DNA of 64,000 nucleotides from Planctomycetales bacterium (GTDB taxonomy: Bacteria; Planctomycetota; Planctomycetia; Pirellulales; Pirellulaceae). Position numbers and translations under genes: made by a program. Positions 1 through 10,975 of the stretch are shown in pieces. Each line of letters starts with the position of its first letter. Positions within the stretch are counted from its first letter, which is position 1. The stretch is taken from contig JAGQPF010000363.1 of assembly GCA_020426845.1 (NCBI GenBank), positions 1 through 64,000 of the forward strand, in the 5' to 3' direction. The notes below the pieces were generated by a model, which worked only from the letters and a program-made list of their open reading frames with translations, was not told where the DNA came from and did no database searches.

Positions 1-268
1 CTGTCACCCCTGCCGGCCTGCCGGGGCTTTGCGCGCAAACCTCAATCGTCACAGGCTGGCAGCCTGTGCCACGTTGCGCGCAGCGTGCGCGGTTCCCCGA
101 GCTCGCGCTCGGGGCTAACGTCTGTCGCCCCTGTCGGGGCTTTGCGCGCGGCAGTGATCCGAAGCGGGCAGTGCCCCGAAGGGGACGGCACGAACAACTC
201 ACCCGCATCGACATCGACATGTCGGTCAAACTTGAACTTGAAGCAATCGCCCCATTAAGCCAGCACCA
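1..268. repeat. Intergenic repeat patch at left edge
   Basis: No gene is seen here. The stretch holds one copy of the dispersed palindrome CAGGCTGGCAGCCTG (52-66), then two adjacent hairpins: CCCCGAG/CTCGGGG (95-101 with 108-114) and GCCCC/GGGGC near 126-140. The second pair follows the pattern stem-CTCGCGC-stem-GCTAACGTCTGTCGCCCC, which recurs near 32,855. A partial copy of the same element lies at 1-40. Any immunity gene for the toxin-like tip of the giant protein would be expected on this side, but none fits before the edge. Confidence 0.6.
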
Positions 269-3200
269 CTAAAAGTCCGAGCCGAGGTTGCGGTAGGACA
301 TGTCGCGTCGCCGCACCAGTGGCGGCACGATCCAAGCGGGGTCGACTCGCTGGCCGAGGACAACCTGCGAGCCGCCGCCGACCATGGCCGCTCGTTGTGC
401 CCCGACTTCGCCAACGTAAAGCACCGTCCCCATTGGCACCTCGATTGACGTCAGCCGCACGGCGCGGTTGGCGGCGGGGAACAAGGCCAAGTCAATGATC
501 GCCGATGTGCCGAGGTTCGGGTCGAGCGACCAGTAACCACCCACCTCTCTAGCGCTGCCCTGCGGATCCCAAACGCGATAGAGGTGAAGCGGCTCGCTCA
601 ATTCGATCTCGGCGTAGCGGGCGCCGGAAAAAGTCGCTGCAATGTCGGGACGCAGCGGCCCAGGCGACATCGCGGTGTGGTGGCCGCGAATCTCACCGGG
701 CACTCGGCTGACGATCAGCTCGTAGCGCCGGTTGCGCACCGACCAGACCGCCGGCAGTTTTCGCATGGAGGCGATGGCGCCGAGCACCCCGCGGGCCACC
801 GTCTCGCCGCCAACGCCCGCCACGGTGTTCTTGGCCACCGATGAGATGAGTTCGCCGCCCCGTGACACATCCACGCCCGTCCGGACCGCGGTCTCCAAGG
901 TTTGCCTGCCGAGGAAGCCAGCAAGTTGATTCAGCCAGGGGCCGTTGCCGCTCATCGTTCCGCTCACCGTGTTCAGCACAAAATAGGTGCCGAGCCGCGA
1001 TGCCCAAGGATACTTCGCCGTGTCGCTCAACGCGTACTCCACGCTGGTCTCCGCCAAGGTGAAGGCGGCCTGTTGCGCCAAATACGGACCGATCGCGGCG
1101 CGAATGGCGACGCCGGACGCCTGGCGTGCCACTGTCGCGGCCACGCCACCGCCGAGCGAACCGATCGCATACATCGACCAGCCCGCCAGCTTGACGCCGG
1201 CCGCCAACTGCCGGTAGCTACCGTGCGGATTGTGGAACGGATGCGAGTAGTAGGCCCAATTGGCGGCGAAGGAGGACAACGTGTCCCGCCAGCCAAAGCC
1301 GGTGTGCGCCACGCCCGAGCGGACCAGGTTCTCGGGATTCACGGGCGCATTGCCCGCAAACAAGTAGCCGTTCTCGCCGGGCTGTCCAGATTCGGGTGAC
1401 AGATATCTGCCACTTACCGGCTCGTACACGCGCCCGTTTGCCACGTAGATCTCGTGCGTCGAGTCGTATTCGAAGCCCGCGAAGCGCGTGGTCACGCGAT
1501 TCCACGCCTCATGCGGGACCTGGTCGATATTCTCCAACGGCCTTCCATAGACGTCGTATCGCAGATGCGAGACCGATCCCGAGGCGACCAAGTCCCGAAT
1601 CGTGCCGACGTGGTCCGGCAGAGTCCAAATGACGCGACCGCCGGCCCCATCTTCTGCGCCACTATCGACATCGATCTCCTCGACCGCGACAAGCCGCCCG
1701 CCGGGAGTCTCCCAGCGACTCACTTGAGGTCGCCCGTCGCCATCCAGCTCCATCACCACTCTGCCACTCGCGTACACGAACCGGCGATCGCTCTCCAGAC
1801 TGCCGTCGGCCAGATCGTCTCGCATGGTGCGCATCACATTGCCCAGCACATCGTATTCCCACCGAGTGGCAGCGATGATGCTCTGCTCTGTCCCCAGATC
1901 GTACTGCTGGACTTGGATCAAGCGGTCCCGCAGATCGTACTCGTATTGAAAACGCTGGGCACGTTGGAGGATCACTTCGGACAATCTCGCGCCGGCAACA
2001 GGCGTGCCATCTGCGTTCTCAAACCGCAGGCGAAGATTCTCGAAGTCTTCATTGCGAGAGACCGAGAATTCCATATGCAGCGGCGAGCCCTCCTCCACAC
2101 GGGCAGCGGCGACAACACCCGCATCGTCCAGCAAGACGACGCCCACCGCGTCGCCGGCGGCCACAACCTCGTTCGCCCAGATCCGATACGTGCCCTGCAG
2201 CAGCGTCTGCGAGCCGAAGCGATATGCCTCCGCCTGCCCTGGATTCGGCGCCGCGGTCGCGATGGGTGTGTAGCGAATTTGCTCGATGACGTTGCCACGC
2301 TCGTCATACTGCATGCGGCTGCCGACATCCTCGACGAGCTGCTTGGCGCCATTCAGCAGTCCGAGGCGATTCCCGGCCGCGTCGAAGCGAGACTCTGGTT
2401 GAATGAGCTGGCCTCGATCGTCGTATTCGTATTGACGCTCGTAGTCGCTGGCATCGCCTTCAATCGTTCGAGTCTCGGAAACGAGGCGGCCCAGATCGTT
2501 ATACGTCAGATCCAACGAGCTGATGTTCTGGCTATCGGAACTGATGTGCCGCACGTGGCTGACGCGGCCGTCCGGCAAGCGGCCGAGATCCGTGCGAACG
2601 ACGGGCTGATAACTGCTTTCGAACAGGCTCCACTGCTCACCGTGCGCCAAGCTGTCCAAGGACGGAGCATCGAGGTAGTCAATCTTCAATCGTTTGTCGC
2701 TGACCACGTCACCGGATTGCGTCATCTCCTGGAGCCGACCGCGATTGTCATACGCGTATTGCGTGCGCATCCAGGCGGCCGCCCCCTGCCCCGCCGACAA
2801 TGAGGCGAGATTGCCGGCACGGTCGTAGTCGTAGTTGATCTTCACGGGCTGGGGGGCTCCATTCCAACTCGCGTAGGCAGCGTCCAGCAGACGTGTGCCC
2901 TCGTCGTATTCGAAGCGATATTCCGAGTGGATCGTGGAGCTTGCCTGTCCGTATTGGGTGTCGAAGGCGCGCGACAGCTCGCCCTGTGGTGTGTACTCGA
3001 AGTTTGCCGAGTAGAGCAGCACCGGATTCTCTCCCGCAGTCCACCACGACTCGCGTTCCATCCTGCCGGCCTGATCATAGCTCCAACGCTTCACATGATC
3101 GGGATGAAGCTCCGCCGTCGGCCGTCCCCATGGATCAAACTCGTACCGCACTTCGCGGACGCCGTTCGATTCGCCGATCAGCCTGCCGTGATTGTCGTAG

Positions 3201-6200
3201 CGATATTGGGTCACTGCCCCCAAGGGATCCTCAACCTCCGCCAGGCGTCCTAAGGCGTCGTAGCGATAGCGAGTTGTCGAGCTCCCACTGGAGTCGTCCA
3301 CCACCTTTTGCAACACATTGCCGAACAGATCGTACTGAAACCGTGTGGTGACACCGGCGTGGTCCACTTGCTCCGCCACCAGCCCGTTCGCCGTGTACCG
3401 TGTCACGGCGACGCCCGCGTCCCCGGTCTCCTTCACGAGCCGATCAAGTCCGTCGTACAACCGGGTGACGTCACCGACTCCCTGGCCTACCAAGTGGACC
3501 TGCCTGCCCCAATCGTCATGCTCCACAACGGCAGGAAGCGAGCCGCTCACGCGAGTCCCCGCAATTCTTCCATGCGAGTCATAGTCATAGGTCGTCACAA
3601 CGGCAGATGCCGTCTCGTCGCCTGGATCATTCGACTGTTCAACGGCCATGAGCCCGGTCGGGCTGTAGCGATAGACAACCTCGGCCCCCGCGTCAGCTTC
3701 GGCTGACGGGCCGACTTGGCGGGTTAGCCGCGACAGCGCATCGAATTGCCGGACAGTTGTTTGAGTTTCGTAGGCGCCGTCAACCAGAGCGGTCGCGGAC
3801 TCACGCACCACGTTGCCCAGCACATCATAGGAAAAGCGAGTAACCAGCCCGGCGTTCTCGGCATCATAGGTCCGGACCAGACGCCCCAGCCCGTCATGCA
3901 CATTGACCACCATCGTGGCGAGTCGGTCATGGATGTTGCTGCCAAACAGACCATCCAGCAGCCCTTCTGACAGAGGTGCGCCGTTGGCAACGAGTTGCCG
4001 ATCCCAGTCCGCCGCCAACTTCAGCACTCGCGACGGTTGGCCGGACGCGTCATAGGCATACAGCGTTGACACCGGCACACCACCCGTGACGGCCGGCGCA
4101 GCGACCGTCGCCGTCAGTCGCCCAAGCGCGTCGTAGTAGTTGACCGTGGGCGGCGCCAACGGCGCGCCGTCCTGGTCCACGATCTCGGTGGACAGCAGTT
4201 CACCCCACGGACTCCACTGACGCCGTTGCGTCAGCTGGCCATGCGTGGCGTTCACGGTATTCGTGGCGGCAGGGGTCGTAGTTGCGATCAAATTGCCCCA
4301 TGGGTCGTAGTCGTATCGCGTCACGGCGACGCCTGTCGCGGCGGGCTCGCGAGTCGAAACCACCTGCCCCAAGCGATCATAGCTGCGGCCGCTGACGTGC
4401 GATTCGTCGGCCGTCGTGAGGACTGTCGTCACAGGACGCCCCATGACGTCATACTCGTACGTCGTCTCGCGGAGAATCTCGATCCCCAGTCCCTCGCTGA
4501 GGCGTTGGACATTTCCCCAGTTGTCATAGGTGTAGGTCGACATCGCACCGCCCCGTTCCACCCCCGAGGGATGCTGCACCGGATTCGCACGCTCCGACAA
4601 GAGTTGATTTCGCGAGTCGTAGGTCCGCTGCACGACCCGGTCGTAACTGGAGACCGACTGCGAGTCGCCATCGCGGTGCTCAACTTCCATCACGACATTG
4701 CCGAGCACATCGTAGATATACCGAACGGGGAACTGCAGTGACTGGCCGTCGGGACTCGCCCAGCCGTGATCCCACAACAATCGTCCCAGCGAGTCATAGC
4801 TCATCACATGCGTGGCTCCGTCGGCCGCGCGCTCCTGAACGAGTCTCCCCAGCGCATCGTAGACCCAGGCGACGGTCGCGATGCCTTGATCCGCCTCGCC
4901 GGAGGGCACGATCGACTGCTCAACTCGCCGGCCCTGGTCGTCATAGCGCCACTGCCAGCTCAGTCCGTCGGACCCTCGCGTCGTCGTCACGAGCTCTCGC
5001 GCGGCGTTGTATTCATACGCGGTCGCCTTGGCCGCTGCCGTGCCGGAGCCTTGCGTCTCGTACTGAACCAAACCGATGGACGGACCGATGGCGTAGTATT
5101 GCCAATCGGTCGCTCGCATCTGCTCTCCATCCCCGGTGGCCTCGTGGGTGAGCAAGCCGCCCGCCAGCGCTTCAATCGACTCGGGAGGCGGCGTGTAACT
5201 CGAACGGACCACACGGGTCTGCCCGTCCGCAGTGGACGTTTCCGCAAGAACGTTGCCATGCAGGTCGCGCAACCAGGCGGTGCGGACTCCCGTCACATCG
5301 ACATGCCAGCCAGGCATCCCGAGAGAGTCATACCCTCCCCACGCCTCGCGTCCACCGTCCGGATAGACCACCTCCACGAGTTGGTTCCGTTCGTAACGAT
5401 AGGTCGTGCGTTGTGGGGCGAGCGGATTCGTGCCGCCTCCGCCTGCAGGCGCCTCGACCGCTAGCAGTTGGCCATGTTGATTGCGGCGCCAATGCCAGGT
5501 GCTGCGAGCGAATGTCTCCGTCGCCGGCTTGGCATTGGCGGTCAACAATCCAAACGCATCGGTTTGAAACATCCACGTTTGAGTCAGAGATTGCTGCAAT
5601 TCGTTGACGGCCGCCAATGCAACGGTCGCCCACGGCTCGCGGAGCGCGTCGGAGGTTGGCGTCGCGTCCTCCTCCCCGCCGACTGCCGTTTGACGAGCAT
5701 CGGGCTCCAGTCGGCCTCGCGCTGCCAGGCGCAGTTCCCCCGTCCCTGCGATCGCCGCGCCGTCGAGCAACTGCGGCTGCACCGACCAACGCGTGCCGAG
5801 CGGATCCACCACGGCAATGACGGCGCCACTGACGTCCGAGCGGTCAAATCGCGAAAGGGATTGGAGCGGATCGCGAACCTCGACCAGTTGTCCCGCGCCA
5901 TCGTATCCGAACTGCCAATGCGCGGGATCGCCTGCCGAAGTCGGCAACGCCATGTTGGTCAGCCTGCCCTCGCTCATGCTCGGAACATACCGCCGGCCCG
6001 CTTCGTCAACGACCGCGGACAACACACCGGCCTCGTAGCGATAGCTCGTGGCAAGACCGCCCTGCCGAACGACGCGAACGAGATCGTCACGACGTCCATC
6101 TCCATCGGCGTCCTCATAATTGAATTGCGTCCGATTCTGGTTGCGGTCCCGTTGCTCGAGCATGATGCCGCCAACAGAAAACTCCGTCACGTCGCCGCGG

Positions 6201-9200
6201 CCATCGCTCCAGACGAACTTGACGCCGTCGGTGGTATGTTCCCGCTTCAATTCGCCCATGGCGCCGTCGGGCGATTGAAACCTCCAATCGCTGGCAACAC
6301 GGACCTCGCCAGCGGAGACTTTTCCGTCAGAGAACGCGCCGTCGGGACCTTGGGTTGAGAGCTTCACCACCAACGGTTCGTCTCCATCCGTCTCAAAGAA
6401 ACCGAGGCTATGCCAGCGCTCACCGCGAATCTCGATCGCAGGCGCCACGCGCTGATCGACAACAAATCGCGTCGTGGTCTGCAGGCCACCGAACGGCTTG
6501 GCGCCACTGACTTCGTAGTACGCGTTGGAAGCCAATTCGGCGGCGGGGCTCCAGGAGACGAAGACCTGCCCGATATCGGTCACATGGTTCCAAGACCACG
6601 TGACGCTTTCGGCGACGCCGTTGGGCCCGCCCATAGAAACAGGTGCCTGCCCTGCCCTGGCCTCCCAGTCGCCAGTGCGTGTGGCGTTCGACTCGTCATA
6701 CAGGACATTCGGAGTCGCCGCAAACCAGGCAGCGGTCCCATCGCCTCGGCTAATGAAGGCGCCGGACTGCGGCGCCGCGCCGAGCGTCGCCAGCCGCGAA
6801 GCGATTGCCCCGGTGAAGTCGCCGTCACCCATGCGAGCCGTTGGATAGAAGTTGTCCTGCAGATAGAGTTGGCCCGCTGGGGAGACCGCCCAGCCTTGCC
6901 CTAATTCCGTTTCGCCGAACGTTGGATTCAGTCGATTCGACCACTCCATGCCGCCTCGCACCGTGCGGCTCCACGACTGTTCATTGACTGACAACGTCAA
7001 TTCGACATCAACGTCGTAGTGGCCGGTCGGCAGCTGGCTCGCGAGCGACTCCGGCGCCGGCACGACAAGCCGCAGCGCGTCGTGCCGATGGCGAGGGTCG
7101 GCCAGTCGGTCGCGGAGCGAGGTCAGATCAAACGATTGAGCCACCCCACGCACACCCGCCACGGTCGCTGTCGCCACCAACCGCGAGTCGGGAGACATTA
7201 GTGCCTCGCTCCACGGCAGGCTCAACTCGACCTCGATCAACGGTTGCTTGTTCAGATCGTCGCGGTAGACCAGTCCTCCCCAACTGGGCGTCAGCAGCAG
7301 CTGGCCCGTCCGCAATGCGACGTCGCCGTGAGGAGATCGTGGGGCCACGGCCAACTCGGCGTCCGCCACTCCGGAGGATGGCAGGCCGGCTGGCTGACGA
7401 TTCGAGCTCCCCACAATCGCGGCCCGGTCGTTGTCCAGCAGGATGATTCGAGCGCTGGCGACTTCGCCGAGACGATAGGGCAAGGGATCTCCTGGACGAC
7501 CATCGCCAGGCGCCGTCTCCAACAGTCCGTGCGCAGCCGCCATCTCGGCCCAAGTGACGAGTCGCACATCGACCGTCTCATCCCACTCCACCTCACGATC
7601 ATCCACGCCGCGGATCCGCACAAAAACATCGCTGGCGCCGTGCGGGATCACGACCACTCCGTATCCGGTATTCGGGTCGATGGTCAGCGACAACGCTTCG
7701 TCGCGCCCTGTGACACCACGCAGTCGCGTCCATTGCAAATCGGCAAACGAGGCGACGCCAAGCCCACCCGAATCTGCCCGACTCCCTTGTTCGTCATCGT
7801 CCCCGGAGCGACTGGGAAAGAACGACGCTTGAAAGAACACCGGCAGGTCGCCGAACTCATTCCCCGTTCCACGACTGACTCTCAGCAGAGCCTCATCTTC
7901 GCCGCCCTCTTGTGCCAATCCGTCCACGGCTTCGAGCGTTACCGCGGATTCAACGTGAACCCGGATCGTATCAGCCACGGAGCCGGCGATCGCGACCTGC
8001 AGTCCGTCGTGGACTCGCGACGTCATCTCGACGGTCAAGTCGTAGGCGCCCGGCAACACGCCTTCGACGTACAGACGCAACTGTCGCGGGTCGCCGCCCG
8101 TAGCCGCGAACAGCTGGTCGTGCCGAATTACGGACGTGCCGTAGGCGGTGACAGTGGCCGAAGGGATGAGATGTCCGGGCTGCTCGGAGGCAACCCCATT
8201 CGCACTGCGTTCTTGCAGCTGATCCAAGGTCCAAAGCCGAATCGGCGGAAGCCCCTCGGTGCCCTCCAGCCCGGGATAGGTGAACCGGAACGCCGCGTCT
8301 TCCAACGGCATCCACTCGGGCACTTCGAGCACAAGCTCGGCGAACTGCGAGGAGGCAACTTCGACCACGTCGTCGCGATCGCCGGGAAGCACGTTGGCGT
8401 CGAATCCATCCAGGGCATCATCGATCAAGTCGCCGTCGCGGTCCACTTGCGTGGTCAGAATTCGCAGACCGGGAAAGTCGGAAACAGCCTCGACGGCATC
8501 CTCCGCCGCATTGCGTTGCAACGTGCCGTCGTTGTCGGTGTCTCCATCAAGATCCAATTCGCCAACGTGATAGGCAGCGGAGTGGGTCGCCTCGTAGACG
8601 GCCTGAGGGTCGAGCCACGGACTTGCAGCGGCATGGAAGTGAGCTTGGATCTCGCCGCTGCCCAACTCGAGTCCTTCGACGAAGAAGGTGACGGTGTGCG
8701 TAGCCTGCGCAAACCCGTCGAGCATAAAGTGAAGATCGCCTTCCTCGGGAACGACTCCGATGCTCTTGAGGAATTCGGCTGTCGCGTACTGACCTGCGCC
8801 GATGGCTCTCCACTCCTGTGACAGCGACTCGCCCGACGTCACGGGAACGGGAACGCCGTTCTCCCCGGTCCTCCACACGCGAATGTTGTCCGGAAATGAC
8901 AACACCAAGTCACCAACCAGGTCCCGCGGCATCAAGCGATTGGATTCGTTGTGGACCACAAACGAGATGGTGCGGAAGTTCGCAAATTCAAGGTGATACT
9001 GCAAGTCCGTGCGGCGGACAGCCGGATCTTGAACGCGAGGCTCTGTCTCGTAGTAGGTGAACGGGGGTTCGTTGGCCGCCTCGTCCCGCAACGGCGAACG
9101 GTCCGGCAAGCCATCCTCGCCCAGCCAACCGCTCGCGACCAGGTCGCTGCGTCGCGCCTTGTGAGCGACGATCTCGCTGTAGTGCGCATTCGGAGACAAG

Positions 9201-10975
9201 TCCAACGGGATCAGCTCGGCCGTTGGGTCAGTTCGCCAGCGAAATTGCGTTTCCCACGTGAACGTCTCCTCCACTTCGCCACAGGGCACGAGTTCGCCGG
9301 GCAAGGGGGCATCGAGATCGACATCGAGGTACGGGTCGCTGCCGACCGGTGCGACCGGGCTATCATCCAACGGCAGTTCCGGGTCCGCATCGATCGGCGC
9401 GACCGGGTCGTCATCAATCGGCGCGACCGGGTCCTCATCGATCGGCGCGACCGGGTCCTCATTAATCGGCGCGACCGGGTCCTCATCGATCGGCGCGACC
9501 GGGTCCTCATCGATCGGCGCGACCGGTCCGTCATCGATCGGCGCGACCGGTCCGTCATCAATCGGTGCGACCGGGTCCTCATCGATCGGCGCGACCGGGT
9601 CCTCATCGATCGGCGCGACCGGTCCGTCATCAATCGGCGCGACCGGGTCCTCATCGATCGGCGCGACCGGGTCGTCACCAATCGAAATGTCCGCGTTGTT
9701 GTCTGCGCCGGTGTTAAGGTCGTCGCCGGTCGCAGCATCGCCTGGAGCCTCCGCCCATGGCCCAACATCCGTGTCACCCAAAGACTCGGCCTCGGCCGCT
9801 TCGTCGGGTGACTCTTCTGCGTTGGTGGCCAACGGCACTCGACAATAGCTGCCGGGCACTGGATGGTAGATGGCCTGACGGTACTGATCTTCTGGCGTCA
9901 CAGTGACTTCCAGCAGGTCGATGATCTCCCCGCCGTCCACGTCCGTGACTCGAAGCCGAATCGTGGCGAATTCATCTCCCTGCAGATCATGAGCAGGAGC
10001 AAGCCGGAGCGCCCCAAAGGCATCCACCGTGGGTGGATCTCGAAAAGCGGCTGCGTTGTCGACATCGAGCACTTCGAACGCAAGCTCGCCCCGGCGTTCA
10101 GGATCCTGAAAGAGCCCGGGAAGTCTCAACGTTCTCACGTTGCCGCTGACGGCCTCACTGTCGCTTCGCCAGCTTTTCAAGGTGAGATGTGACGTCGAAC
10201 CGCGGGGCGCATCGTTCTCGGGAAGCACATTCACCCAGATATTGGTGGCCCCGATGTCCCCCGCTTCGTCCGTAGCGACCACGGCCCATTGGCTGTAACC
10301 GAATTCGTCCGCATCCAAGGTGACGTCGAGGCGGCCGTCCACTACCACCATCTCTTGCACAGGGTCTGCAGCTCCACTGTGCGTCACGGGCCAGGCGTCC
10401 AAGGTGAGTTGTTCGCCGTCGACTTCGTGAAACCACTCGCCGATATCGATGGAGAACGCTTGCCCCTCAATGACGGTGAATGTGCGTTGCTCGACGTCTC
10501 CCGCCACGACTCGCGGCGCGTCGGGCGCCGGCTCGATTTTCAGCGGGATATCCAGAAAGCCTTGGCGATATCCATCGGACCCTTGCAGCCGCAGCGTGGT
10601 CTCGCCATGGACGTCGGGCATTGACTCAAGTCTCAGCACCTCGGCCTCGGCGACGACCGACACCAATGCTTCGTCCGCCACCTGGGCATTCCAGTGCATG
10701 GGCGCACCGGGGGCGACGTCGAACAGCTGGCCTTGGTCATCGGTCAGCTGCGGGGCCAATTCGGCAAACGCCCAGATCGCCGTCCCGAAGTCCTCGGGAG
10801 CCGTCAGCACCAAGTCGGACGCCATCATCTGCCGCGGCTCCAGCGTCTCCAGCGCAAGCGCCGACGAGCGGCTTGGCCGGCGGGACGCGAGTCCGGCGCG
10901 AGCCGTGCTCCGGCGCCTCGCTCGTTGAGCCATGCGAGCCAGCAATCGTTTCCACGAACGGGTGTGAAGAGGCAT
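269..10975 (-). CDS. Giant RHS/YD-repeat surface protein with toxin-like C-terminus
   Basis: A 3,568-residue protein, much longer than usual RHS proteins (about 1,400-1,600). The N-terminus is Arg-rich, then carries the LETLEPRQMMA signature (about residues 42-53) found on planctomycete cell-surface giants. Ig/cadherin-like segments follow to about 400, then an acidic 8-residue repeat (about 431-544), more beta-rich sequence, a Calx-beta-like region (about 1,060-1,190, 'DREVEWDETVDVRLV'), and a long YD-repeat region (about 1,580-3,150, many 'YDxxGRL' units). The RHS core end 'VSGRYLSPE' lies near 3,188. The last ~370 residues are different: hydrophobic Gly/Ala-rich sequence, then 'LYRVWDPQGS...GGYWSLDP...VPMGTVLYVGEV...GGGSQVVL', which resembles ADP-ribosyltransferase/TNT-like toxin tips of polymorphic toxins (recall, uncertain). 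GGAGGG lies 6-7 nt before the ATG. Probably exported and anchored or displayed; function inferred as contact-dependent toxin or adhesin. The gene has no co-oriented neighbour in the window. Confidence 0.85.
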   Translation of the reverse strand: MPLHTRSWKRLLARMAQRARRRSTARAGLASRRPSRSSALALETLEPRQMMASDLVLTAPEDFGTAIWAFAELAPQLTDDQGQLFDVAPGAPMHWNAQVADEALVSVVAEAEVLRLESMPDVHGETTLRLQGSDGYRQGFLDIPLKIEPAPDAPRVVAGDVEQRTFTVIEGQAFSIDIGEWFHEVDGEQLTLDAWPVTHSGAADPVQEMVVVDGRLDVTLDADEFGYSQWAVVATDEAGDIGATNIWVNVLPENDAPRGSTSHLTLKSWRSDSEAVSGNVRTLRLPGLFQDPERRGELAFEVLDVDNAAAFRDPPTVDAFGALRLAPAHDLQGDEFATIRLRVTDVDGGEIIDLLEVTVTPEDQYRQAIYHPVPGSYCRVPLATNAEESPDEAAEAESLGDTDVGPWAEAPGDAATGDDLNTGADNNADISIGDDPVAPIDEDPVAPIDDGPVAPIDEDPVAPIDEDPVAPIDDGPVAPIDDGPVAPIDEDPVAPIDEDPVAPINEDPVAPIDEDPVAPIDDDPVAPIDADPELPLDDSPVAPVGSDPYLDVDLDAPLPGELVPCGEVEETFTWETQFRWRTDPTAELIPLDLSPNAHYSEIVAHKARRSDLVASGWLGEDGLPDRSPLRDEAANEPPFTYYETEPRVQDPAVRRTDLQYHLEFANFRTISFVVHNESNRLMPRDLVGDLVLSFPDNIRVWRTGENGVPVPVTSGESLSQEWRAIGAGQYATAEFLKSIGVVPEEGDLHFMLDGFAQATHTVTFFVEGLELGSGEIQAHFHAAASPWLDPQAVYEATHSAAYHVGELDLDGDTDNDGTLQRNAAEDAVEAVSDFPGLRILTTQVDRDGDLIDDALDGFDANVLPGDRDDVVEVASSQFAELVLEVPEWMPLEDAAFRFTYPGLEGTEGLPPIRLWTLDQLQERSANGVASEQPGHLIPSATVTAYGTSVIRHDQLFAATGGDPRQLRLYVEGVLPGAYDLTVEMTSRVHDGLQVAIAGSVADTIRVHVESAVTLEAVDGLAQEGGEDEALLRVSRGTGNEFGDLPVFFQASFFPSRSGDDDEQGSRADSGGLGVASFADLQWTRLRGVTGRDEALSLTIDPNTGYGVVVIPHGASDVFVRIRGVDDREVEWDETVDVRLVTWAEMAAAHGLLETAPGDGRPGDPLPYRLGEVASARIILLDNDRAAIVGSSNRQPAGLPSSGVADAELAVAPRSPHGDVALRTGQLLLTPSWGGLVYRDDLNKQPLIEVELSLPWSEALMSPDSRLVATATVAGVRGVAQSFDLTSLRDRLADPRHRHDALRLVVPAPESLASQLPTGHYDVDVELTLSVNEQSWSRTVRGGMEWSNRLNPTFGETELGQGWAVSPAGQLYLQDNFYPTARMGDGDFTGAIASRLATLGAAPQSGAFISRGDGTAAWFAATPNVLYDESNATRTGDWEARAGQAPVSMGGPNGVAESVTWSWNHVTDIGQVFVSWSPAAELASNAYYEVSGAKPFGGLQTTTRFVVDQRVAPAIEIRGERWHSLGFFETDGDEPLVVKLSTQGPDGAFSDGKVSAGEVRVASDWRFQSPDGAMGELKREHTTDGVKFVWSDGRGDVTEFSVGGIMLEQRDRNQNRTQFNYEDADGDGRRDDLVRVVRQGGLATSYRYEAGVLSAVVDEAGRRYVPSMSEGRLTNMALPTSAGDPAHWQFGYDGAGQLVEVRDPLQSLSRFDRSDVSGAVIAVVDPLGTRWSVQPQLLDGAAIAGTGELRLAARGRLEPDARQTAVGGEEDATPTSDALREPWATVALAAVNELQQSLTQTWMFQTDAFGLLTANAKPATETFARSTWHWRRNQHGQLLAVEAPAGGGGTNPLAPQRTTYRYERNQLVEVVYPDGGREAWGGYDSLGMPGWHVDVTGVRTAWLRDLHGNVLAETSTADGQTRVVRSSYTPPPESIEALAGGLLTHEATGDGEQMRATDWQYYAIGPSIGLVQYETQGSGTAAAKATAYEYNAARELVTTTRGSDGLSWQWRYDDQGRRVEQSIVPSGEADQGIATVAWVYDALGRLVQERAADGATHVMSYDSLGRLLWDHGWASPDGQSLQFPVRYIYDVLGNVVMEVEHRDGDSQSVSSYDRVVQRTYDSRNQLLSERANPVQHPSGVERGGAMSTYTYDNWGNVQRLSEGLGIEILRETTYEYDVMGRPVTTVLTTADESHVSGRSYDRLGQVVSTREPAATGVAVTRYDYDPWGNLIATTTPAATNTVNATHGQLTQRRQWSPWGELLSTEIVDQDGAPLAPPTVNYYDALGRLTATVAAPAVTGGVPVSTLYAYDASGQPSRVLKLAADWDRQLVANGAPLSEGLLDGLFGSNIHDRLATMVVNVHDGLGRLVRTYDAENAGLVTRFSYDVLGNVVRESATALVDGAYETQTTVRQFDALSRLTRQVGPSAEADAGAEVVYRYSPTGLMAVEQSNDPGDETASAVVTTYDYDSHGRIAGTRVSGSLPAVVEHDDWGRQVHLVGQGVGDVTRLYDGLDRLVKETGDAGVAVTRYTANGLVAEQVDHAGVTTRFQYDLFGNVLQKVVDDSSGSSTTRYRYDALGRLAEVEDPLGAVTQYRYDNHGRLIGESNGVREVRYEFDPWGRPTAELHPDHVKRWSYDQAGRMERESWWTAGENPVLLYSANFEYTPQGELSRAFDTQYGQASSTIHSEYRFEYDEGTRLLDAAYASWNGAPQPVKINYDYDRAGNLASLSAGQGAAAWMRTQYAYDNRGRLQEMTQSGDVVSDKRLKIDYLDAPSLDSLAHGEQWSLFESSYQPVVRTDLGRLPDGRVSHVRHISSDSQNISSLDLTYNDLGRLVSETRTIEGDASDYERQYEYDDRGQLIQPESRFDAAGNRLGLLNGAKQLVEDVGSRMQYDERGNVIEQIRYTPIATAAPNPGQAEAYRFGSQTLLQGTYRIWANEVVAAGDAVGVVLLDDAGVVAAARVEEGSPLHMEFSVSRNEDFENLRLRFENADGTPVAGARLSEVILQRAQRFQYEYDLRDRLIQVQQYDLGTEQSIIAATRWEYDVLGNVMRTMRDDLADGSLESDRRFVYASGRVVMELDGDGRPQVSRWETPGGRLVAVEEIDVDSGAEDGAGGRVIWTLPDHVGTIRDLVASGSVSHLRYDVYGRPLENIDQVPHEAWNRVTTRFAGFEYDSTHEIYVANGRVYEPVSGRYLSPESGQPGENGYLFAGNAPVNPENLVRSGVAHTGFGWRDTLSSFAANWAYYSHPFHNPHGSYRQLAAGVKLAGWSMYAIGSLGGGVAATVARQASGVAIRAAIGPYLAQQAAFTLAETSVEYALSDTAKYPWASRLGTYFVLNTVSGTMSGNGPWLNQLAGFLGRQTLETAVRTGVDVSRGGELISSVAKNTVAGVGGETVARGVLGAIASMRKLPAVWSVRNRRYELIVSRVPGEIRGHHTAMSPGPLRPDIAATFSGARYAEIELSEPLHLYRVWDPQGSAREVGGYWSLDPNLGTSAIIDLALFPAANRAVRLTSIEVPMGTVLYVGEVGAQRAAMVGGGSQVVLGQRVDPAWIVPPLVRRRDMSYRNLGSDF
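9342..9681 (-). repeat. 24-bp in-frame tandem repeat, about 14 copies
   Basis: The unit reads about GGTCCTCATCGATCGGCGCGACC(G) on the plus strand and encodes the eight residues D-E/D-D/G-P-V-A-P-I inside the giant RHS protein (about residues 431-544). Variants differ mostly at two codons (DED, DDG, NED), so the copies are not identical. The right end decays to 'DADPELPL' and 'DDSPVAPV'. The repeat is acidic and Pro-rich, so probably an extended linker or stalk. The repeat also keeps other frames open, which explains long spurious frames on both strands. Confidence 0.9.

What the first reader, a model, noticed from the sequence alone, without database searches (positions are those of the whole stretch)
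269..1420. Toxin-like tip on a giant RHS protein, with no immunity gene visible
Past the RHS-core end (near residue 3,188) the sequence changes to a Gly/Ala-rich hydrophobic section and then a compact domain with 'LYRVWD', 'GGYWSL', 'VPMGTVLYVGE' and 'GGGSQVVL'. From recall this resembles ADP-ribosyltransferase or TNT-like tips of polymorphic toxins. An immunity gene would be expected just downstream, at the left edge, but only repeats are seen there. It may lie outside the window or may be missing.
Basis: partly seen in the sequence, partly recalled or inferred. Interest (0 to 1): 0.6.

Follow-up and report, generated by a model that had tools for sequence, protein, structure and literature searches.

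The report
NAD-destroying toxin tip on giant protein
The end of a giant planctomycete repeat protein is a toxin module that most likely kills cells by destroying their NAD; the protective gene that sits beside it in relatives is not visible here because the assembled sequence stops, inside a repeat, 268 bases past the toxin gene.

Summary
A 3,568-aa RHS ORF (269-10975, minus) ends in a compact ~140-aa domain with the quoted motifs. No curated library names it (Pfam, NCBIfam, PADLOC, PDB sequences). Homologues were found in Proteobacteria and Planctomycetota as tips of Rhs, pretoxin-HINT and PAAR-like proteins and beside CDI genes. A profile built without the window sequence scores the tip at 88 bits; the best of 200 shuffles scores 4.6. 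A model of a homologue has Tse6, Rhs1-CT, Tne2 and fungal NADases as its first 16 PDB matches. Arg, Gly and Gln (LYR, first G of GxF/W, GGGxQ) are invariant. [quoted passage not shown] The 'TNT-like' guess is supported; classical ADP-ribosyltransferase is less likely. Most homologous tips have a small ORF touching their stop; in 8 loci it is DUF6966-like, which I propose as an immunity family. The window is base 1 of its contig and ends in a dispersed repeat. No such gene lies in the 268 bp, and none of the immunity families tested was found elsewhere in the assembly. 'Missing' is therefore unproven. Extra finding: both RHS self-cleavage DP motifs are degenerate here, though intact in the five other RHS core ends of the genome.

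The parts
269..10975 (-). giant RHS/YD-repeat protein, 3,568 aa
   Evidence: open frame; RHS_repeat PF05593 8.7e-61, 12 stretches
10814..10858 (-). planctomycete extracellular-protein N-terminal motif (LETLEPRQMMA)
   Evidence: PF07595 match at residues 40-54, sub-threshold 15.0 bits; motif visible in the translation
1337..1558 (-). RHS-associated core, model positions 1-69 of 76; the last positions of the model are not matched
   Evidence: TIGR03696: 31.9 bits (just under the 32.5 cut-off), 37.7 bits
1325..1399 (-). site of the RHS C-terminal self-cleavage motif, degenerate here (SPESG...NPENL in place of DPxGx...DPxGL)
   Evidence: comparison with 5 other RHS core ends of the genome and 3 outside, all with DP at both places
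704..1336 (-). Gly/Ala-rich linker between RHS core and toxin tip
   Evidence: composition and hydropathy
272..697 (-). TNT-like NADase-fold toxin tip
   Evidence: homologues, leave-out HMM 88 bits, fold matches of a homologue model
566..583 (-). LYRVWD: first core strand, Arg invariant in the 12-member family alignment
524..541 (-). GGYWSL: a G invariant, aromatic residues following
   Evidence: role inferred by analogy with Phe1386 of Rhs1-CT
407..439 (-). VPMGTVLYVGE: two strands; P, G and T nearly invariant
356..379 (-). GGGSQVVL: invariant Gln, candidate for the conserved NADase glutamine
   Evidence: analogous to Gln1452 of Rhs1-CT, inferred
10..151 (.). dispersed genomic repeat between the toxin gene and the contig end
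   Evidence: 120 matches to window 1-2000 in the own genome, nearly all to this repeat

Best explanation
The last ~140 residues are a polymorphic-toxin tip with the TNT-like NADase fold. Delivered into a target cell, it most likely hydrolyses NAD+ and/or NADP+ to nicotinamide and ADP-ribose(-phosphate), collapsing energy metabolism, using the invariant Arg of LYR, the aromatic of GxW/F and the invariant Gln of GGGxQ. The RHS cocoon carries it. It is probably not released by the usual RHS aspartyl self-cleavage, because both DP motifs are degenerate. Export is inferred to use the planctomycete LEPR-type N-terminus rather than a PAAR spike. A small immunity gene directly downstream is the rule in relatives; here it is cut off by the contig end, separated from the toxin by a repeat, or lost. 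Shown: tip homology, tip exchange on related backbones, immunity-like neighbours in relatives, fold resemblance of a homologue model. Inferred: catalysis, target, export route.
For: Homologues in plasmids and planctomycete genomes. They sit on Rhs (Rahnella L041, Sphingomonas L045), pretoxin-HINT (L011; PF07591), a PAAR-like protein by inspection (L069), in an RHS cassette array (L049) and beside CDI genes (L042, L044). HMM without the window: 88 bits against at most 4.6 for shuffles. AlphaFold model of homologue L060 (aligned with the window tip and L049; pLDDT 58.6): the first 16 PDB matches are all Tse6, Rhs1-CT, Tne2 and fungal NADases (probability 0.60-1.00), then a drop to 0.03 or less. 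Only Pfam family touched by any of 12 members at E up to 10: TNT, E 0.22. Invariant R, G and Q; a strictly conserved Gln, an Arg and a Phe are essential in Rhs1-CT (PMC10539506). Related backbones carry other toxins, AHH nuclease (1.6e-19) and Ntox46-like, each followed by a small ORF. DUF6966-like ORF at 8 tip loci, 19.5-77.6 bits leave-one-out, shuffle maximum 4.1.
Against: No significant sequence match to any solved NADase or to PF14021 above cut-off. The usable model is of a homologue, moderate in confidence (pLDDT 58.6, pTM 0.56), with Foldseek E-values 0.02-0.45; the model of the window tip itself failed (pLDDT 36.9). The window tip lacks the LQxxID segment of its closest relatives. Activity was not tested. 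The degenerate cleavage motif and absent immunity gene could mean the protein is no longer a working toxin.
Confidence: 0.78

Rival explanations
1. The tip is an ART-fold toxin that transfers ADP-ribose to a protein, RNA or DNA target rather than hydrolysing NAD.
For: ART and TNT-like folds share the NAD-binding core, and ART tips occur on RHS proteins (PMC3482391; PMC13285283).
Against: Every high-ranking PDB match is a glycohydrolase, none a transferase. The family has no conserved E or ExE at the last core strand; the invariant residue there is Gln.
Confidence: 0.1
2. The tip is a decayed toxin on an adhesin-like giant RHS protein: cleavage motif and immunity gene have been lost and the domain persists as a passive surface module.
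For: Both DP self-cleavage motifs are degenerate although the five other RHS core ends of the genome keep them. No immunity gene in the last 268 bp, and none of the immunity families tested in the assembly.
Against: The 10.7-kb frame is intact and the tip keeps every residue invariant in the family, which neutral decay would be expected to break.
Confidence: 0.12
3. On the immunity question only: the immunity gene is present and ordinary, a few hundred bases beyond the repeat, and unseen only because the assembly broke there. This is compatible with the best explanation.
For: The contig begins in a repeat found at many other contig ends; 777 contigs; relatives of the tip and backbone nearly always have a small downstream ORF.
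Against: In relatives the ORF usually overlaps the tip's stop or starts within 16 bp of it; here the first 268 bp hold no such gene. No DUF6966 gene over cut-off and no relative of five neighbour genes in the 97.5%-complete assembly.
Confidence: 0.45

Closest known systems
TNT-like NAD(P)+ glycohydrolase toxins of type VI secretion: Tse6 (4ZV0), Tne2 (6B12), Serratia Rhs1-CT (6XTD; PMC10539506)
   Same: Predicted fold of a homologue, C-terminal position on RHS/PAAR-type carriers, conserved Gln near the last core strand, small neighbouring immunity gene in relatives.
   Different: No detectable sequence similarity to the solved members; carrier has no PAAR domain match and carries a planctomycete LEPR motif.
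TNT family PF14021 and fungal surface NADases (AfNADase 6YGE/6YGF)
   Same: Fold match of the homologue model to the fungal NADases; weak TNT hit by one of 12 members, E 0.22.
   Different: Below Pfam threshold; the window tip itself has no hit.
Tne5, ART-fold Rhs NAD(P) glycohydrolase of Pluralibacter (PMC13285283)
   Same: ART-related NADase on an Rhs protein with a downstream immunity gene.
   Different: Tne5 has self-cleavage DP motifs, PAAR, and Lys/Glu pocket residues; here Arg/aromatic/Gln. Sequence comparison with Tne5 not done.
DUF6966 (PF22294), function unknown
   Same: Sits immediately downstream of 8 homologous tips.
   Different: Not found over cut-off in the window's genome.

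Membership tests
TNT-like NAD(P)+ glycohydrolase superfamily | TNT/ART-like split beta-sheet fold | tested here: met
   Homologue model: first 16 PDB matches are all NADases of this superfamily. Moderate-confidence model of a 36%-identical homologue; the window tip's own model failed.
TNT-like NAD(P)+ glycohydrolase superfamily | strictly conserved Gln placing the nicotinamide ribose, with aromatic and Arg residues | tested here: inconclusive
   Invariant Arg and Gln and a GxF/W aromatic present in the family; structural equivalence to Q1452/R1418/F1386 of Rhs1-CT inferred, not superposed.
TNT-like NAD(P)+ glycohydrolase superfamily | sequence match to PF14021 or a solved member (not defining for the superfamily, whose known subgroups show low mutual similarity; PMC10539506) | tested here: not met
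   No hit over cut-off.
TNT-like NAD(P)+ glycohydrolase superfamily | hydrolyses NAD(P)+ | not testable with these tools
   needs purified protein
RHS polymorphic toxin | YD/RHS repeats and RHS-associated core | tested here: met
   PF05593 8.7e-61; TIGR03696 37.7 bits, 31.9 (cut-off 32.5)
RHS polymorphic toxin | exchangeable C-terminal tips on a related backbone | tested here: met
   Related backbones with AHH nuclease and Ntox46-like tips
RHS polymorphic toxin | immunity gene immediately downstream | tested here: inconclusive
   None in 268 bp before the contig end; sequence beyond unavailable
Self-cleaving T6SS Rhs effector | C-terminal DPxGL...DPxGL autoproteolysis motif | tested here: not met
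   SPESG...NPENL; DP present at both places in 8 of 8 comparison cores
Self-cleaving T6SS Rhs effector | PAAR domain | tested here: not met
   no PAAR match in the full protein; the genome does encode a T6SS sheath protein
Classical R-S-E ADP-ribosyltransferase | catalytic R, S and E residues | tested here: not met
   no ART profile hit; no conserved E near the last core strand in the family alignment

The most novel reading that the evidence does not exclude
A giant surface RHS protein of a planctomycete carries an NADase that is neither self-released nor paired with an immunity gene: the producer is safe because the uncleaved toxin is exported by the LEPR route and never meets its own cytosol, so it is aimed at something other than kin, such as other bacteria or grazing eukaryotes.
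Probability: 0.12. Interest if true: 0.65.

Novelty: new member of a known kind. Interest (0 to 1): 0.42.

Why it matters
It names a toxin family that the searched libraries leave blank and gives a testable function, immunity, to DUF6966, which no paper in the held library mentions. It extends TNT-like NADase tips to planctomycete RHS proteins, whose targets and delivery are little known. The loss of the self-cleavage motif in one RHS protein while its genome-mates keep it makes it testable whether release is needed for toxicity.

Tried and rejected
Direct profile and sequence searches of the tip in Pfam, NCBIfam, PADLOC and PDB gave nothing; PHROGs gave only a weak unknown-function hit. First structure job, window tip first with 2 sequences: pLDDT 36.9, discarded. 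The viral-structure library gave no informative match. Viral-contig scans gave one useful tip (L060) and one DUF6966 locus (L059). A weak DUF6966 hit in the own genome (C36, 17.4 bits) lies in a frame broken by a stop, opposite or overlapping a cytochrome-type gene, and was rejected. A five-protein composite query of candidate immunity proteins found nothing in the own genome (E 2). Weak tip hits (E above 0.001) were treated as chance unless the profile search recovered them. Planctomycetota hits to the TNT family were few and mostly below cut-off.

Full report
WHERE IT IS. The window is bases 1-64000 of contig C160 of a 9.52-Mb, 777-contig planctomycete assembly. The phylum is inferred: genome G394, listed as same-phylum, has a contig of the same length and position as a record titled 'Phycisphaeraceae bacterium', and the protein carries a LEPR motif (PF07595, sub-threshold). 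The left edge is therefore a contig end, not an arbitrary cut. Bases 10-151 are a dispersed repeat found in many places of the same assembly, often at contig ends.

THE PROTEIN. ORF 269-10975 (minus) has 3,568 residues: LEPR motif near residue 40, weak Ig-like matches, RHS/YD repeats (PF05593 8.7e-61), RHS-associated core at residues 3140-3213, a Gly/Ala-rich linker, then the tip. The linker is only mildly hydrophobic (mean 0.06) and no sampled window looks transmembrane. The canonical C-terminal self-cleavage motif of RHS toxins (DPhGL-X17-DPhGL, PMC13285283) reads SPESG...NPENL here, while five other RHS core ends of the same genome and three from elsewhere have DP at both places. No PAAR match was found, although the genome encodes a T6SS sheath protein.

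THE TIP FAMILY. No curated library recognises the tip, but sequence searches do: Planctomycetota (L010/L049 at 47% identity, L011, L012) and plasmids of Rhodoferax, Chimaeribacter, Rahnella, Paraburkholderia, Sinorhizobium and Sphingomonas. Contexts are those of polymorphic toxins: Rhs proteins (Rahnella; Sphingomonas beside a DUF1795 gene), a pretoxin-HINT protein (PF07591), a PAAR-like carrier by inspection (L069), genes beside CDI loci, and an array of near-identical RHS core ends with different tips (L049). A profile of 14 homologues without the window scores the window tip 88 bits against at most 4.6 for 200 shuffles. In a 12-member alignment R (of LYR), G (of GGYW) and Q (of GGGSQ) are invariant.

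FOLD. A model of the window tip failed (pLDDT 36.9). A model of the homologue L060, aligned with L049 and the window tip, reached pLDDT 58.6 and pTM 0.56. Its first 16 PDB matches are all NADases of the TNT-like superfamily: Tse6, Rhs1-CT, Tne2, Aspergillus, Neurospora and Fusarium NADases, probability 0.60-1.00; the following matches fall to 0.03 or less. E-values are weak (0.02 at best), so the support lies in the consistency of the list. Among 24,736 Pfam families only TNT is touched by any of 12 members, at E 0.22. In Serratia Rhs1-CT, Phe1386, Arg1418 and Gln1452 are essential and the Gln is strictly conserved across the compared NADases (PMC10539506). The GxW/F aromatic, the invariant Arg and the invariant Gln are the natural counterparts here; that equivalence is inferred.

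IMMUNITY. In 8 homologous tip loci (L012, L039, L040, L041, L042, L044, L045, L067) the neighbouring ORF belongs to one family related to DUF6966 (PF22294), with leave-one-out scores of 19.5-77.6 bits against at most 4.1 for shuffles. In seven of the eight it overlaps the tip's stop or starts within 16 bp of it; in L012, where the tip frame is broken, it starts 93 bp after the recognisable tip. Three tips of the clade nearest the window (L049, L011, L043) have an unrelated small ORF overlapping the stop instead. Two further same-family relatives also have a small ORF after or overlapping the tip frame, one of them after an interrupted tip (L099, L100). Most backbone relatives with other tips do too. 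In the window the next 268 bp hold only a repeat-derived open frame of 76 codons. No DUF6966 gene over cut-off and no relative of five neighbour proteins was found elsewhere in the assembly. The proper statement is 'not visible, and not in the usual place', not 'missing'.

POLYMORPHISM. Middle-region relatives of the window backbone (about 30-38% identity) exist in other genomes of the order. One ends in an AHH nuclease (1.6e-19), one in an Ntox46-like toxin (1.1e-4, just below cut-off). This fits tip exchange on a shared carrier.

CONCLUSION. [quoted passage not shown] Enzymatic activity, target and release are inferred. The new elements are the family itself, the proposed role of DUF6966 as its immunity, and the degenerate self-cleavage site. 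I do not file the protein as a self-cleaving T6SS Rhs effector, because two defining features were tested and not met.

Noticed in passing
L074:3001-3276 and L078:3001-3276: A DUF6966-like gene (WP_004967304.1, 38% identical to the Rahnella tip-adjacent gene) sits without any tip upstream beside a RelE-type toxin-antitoxin pair and aph(6)-Id/aph(3'')-Ib on an Acinetobacter and an E. coli plasmid; possibly an orphan immunity gene carried with resistance genes.
   Followed up: partly
L049:98-9083: Array of at least four near-identical RHS core ends, most followed by different tips, with a transposase-like ORF between them, in a Phycisphaeraceae genome.
   Followed up: partly
window 1-268: Dispersed repeat of the genome at many contig ends; probably a cause of this assembly's fragmentation.
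   Followed up: partly
L079 and L081 (own contig C352): Two RHS core ends in tandem on one contig with different tips: a second cassette-like RHS locus in the same genome.
   Followed up: no
L099 (genome G529, same family): Related tip interrupted by a stop within its Gly-rich motif region, followed by a small ORF and a second copy of the pre-tip region with a different end: looks like a displaced old tip.
   Followed up: no
L095 (genome G014) 6697-7935: Backbone relative with an Ntox46-like tip ending in a GGGLQYF motif and a 107-aa ORF 47 bp downstream, close to the end of its contig.
   Followed up: partly
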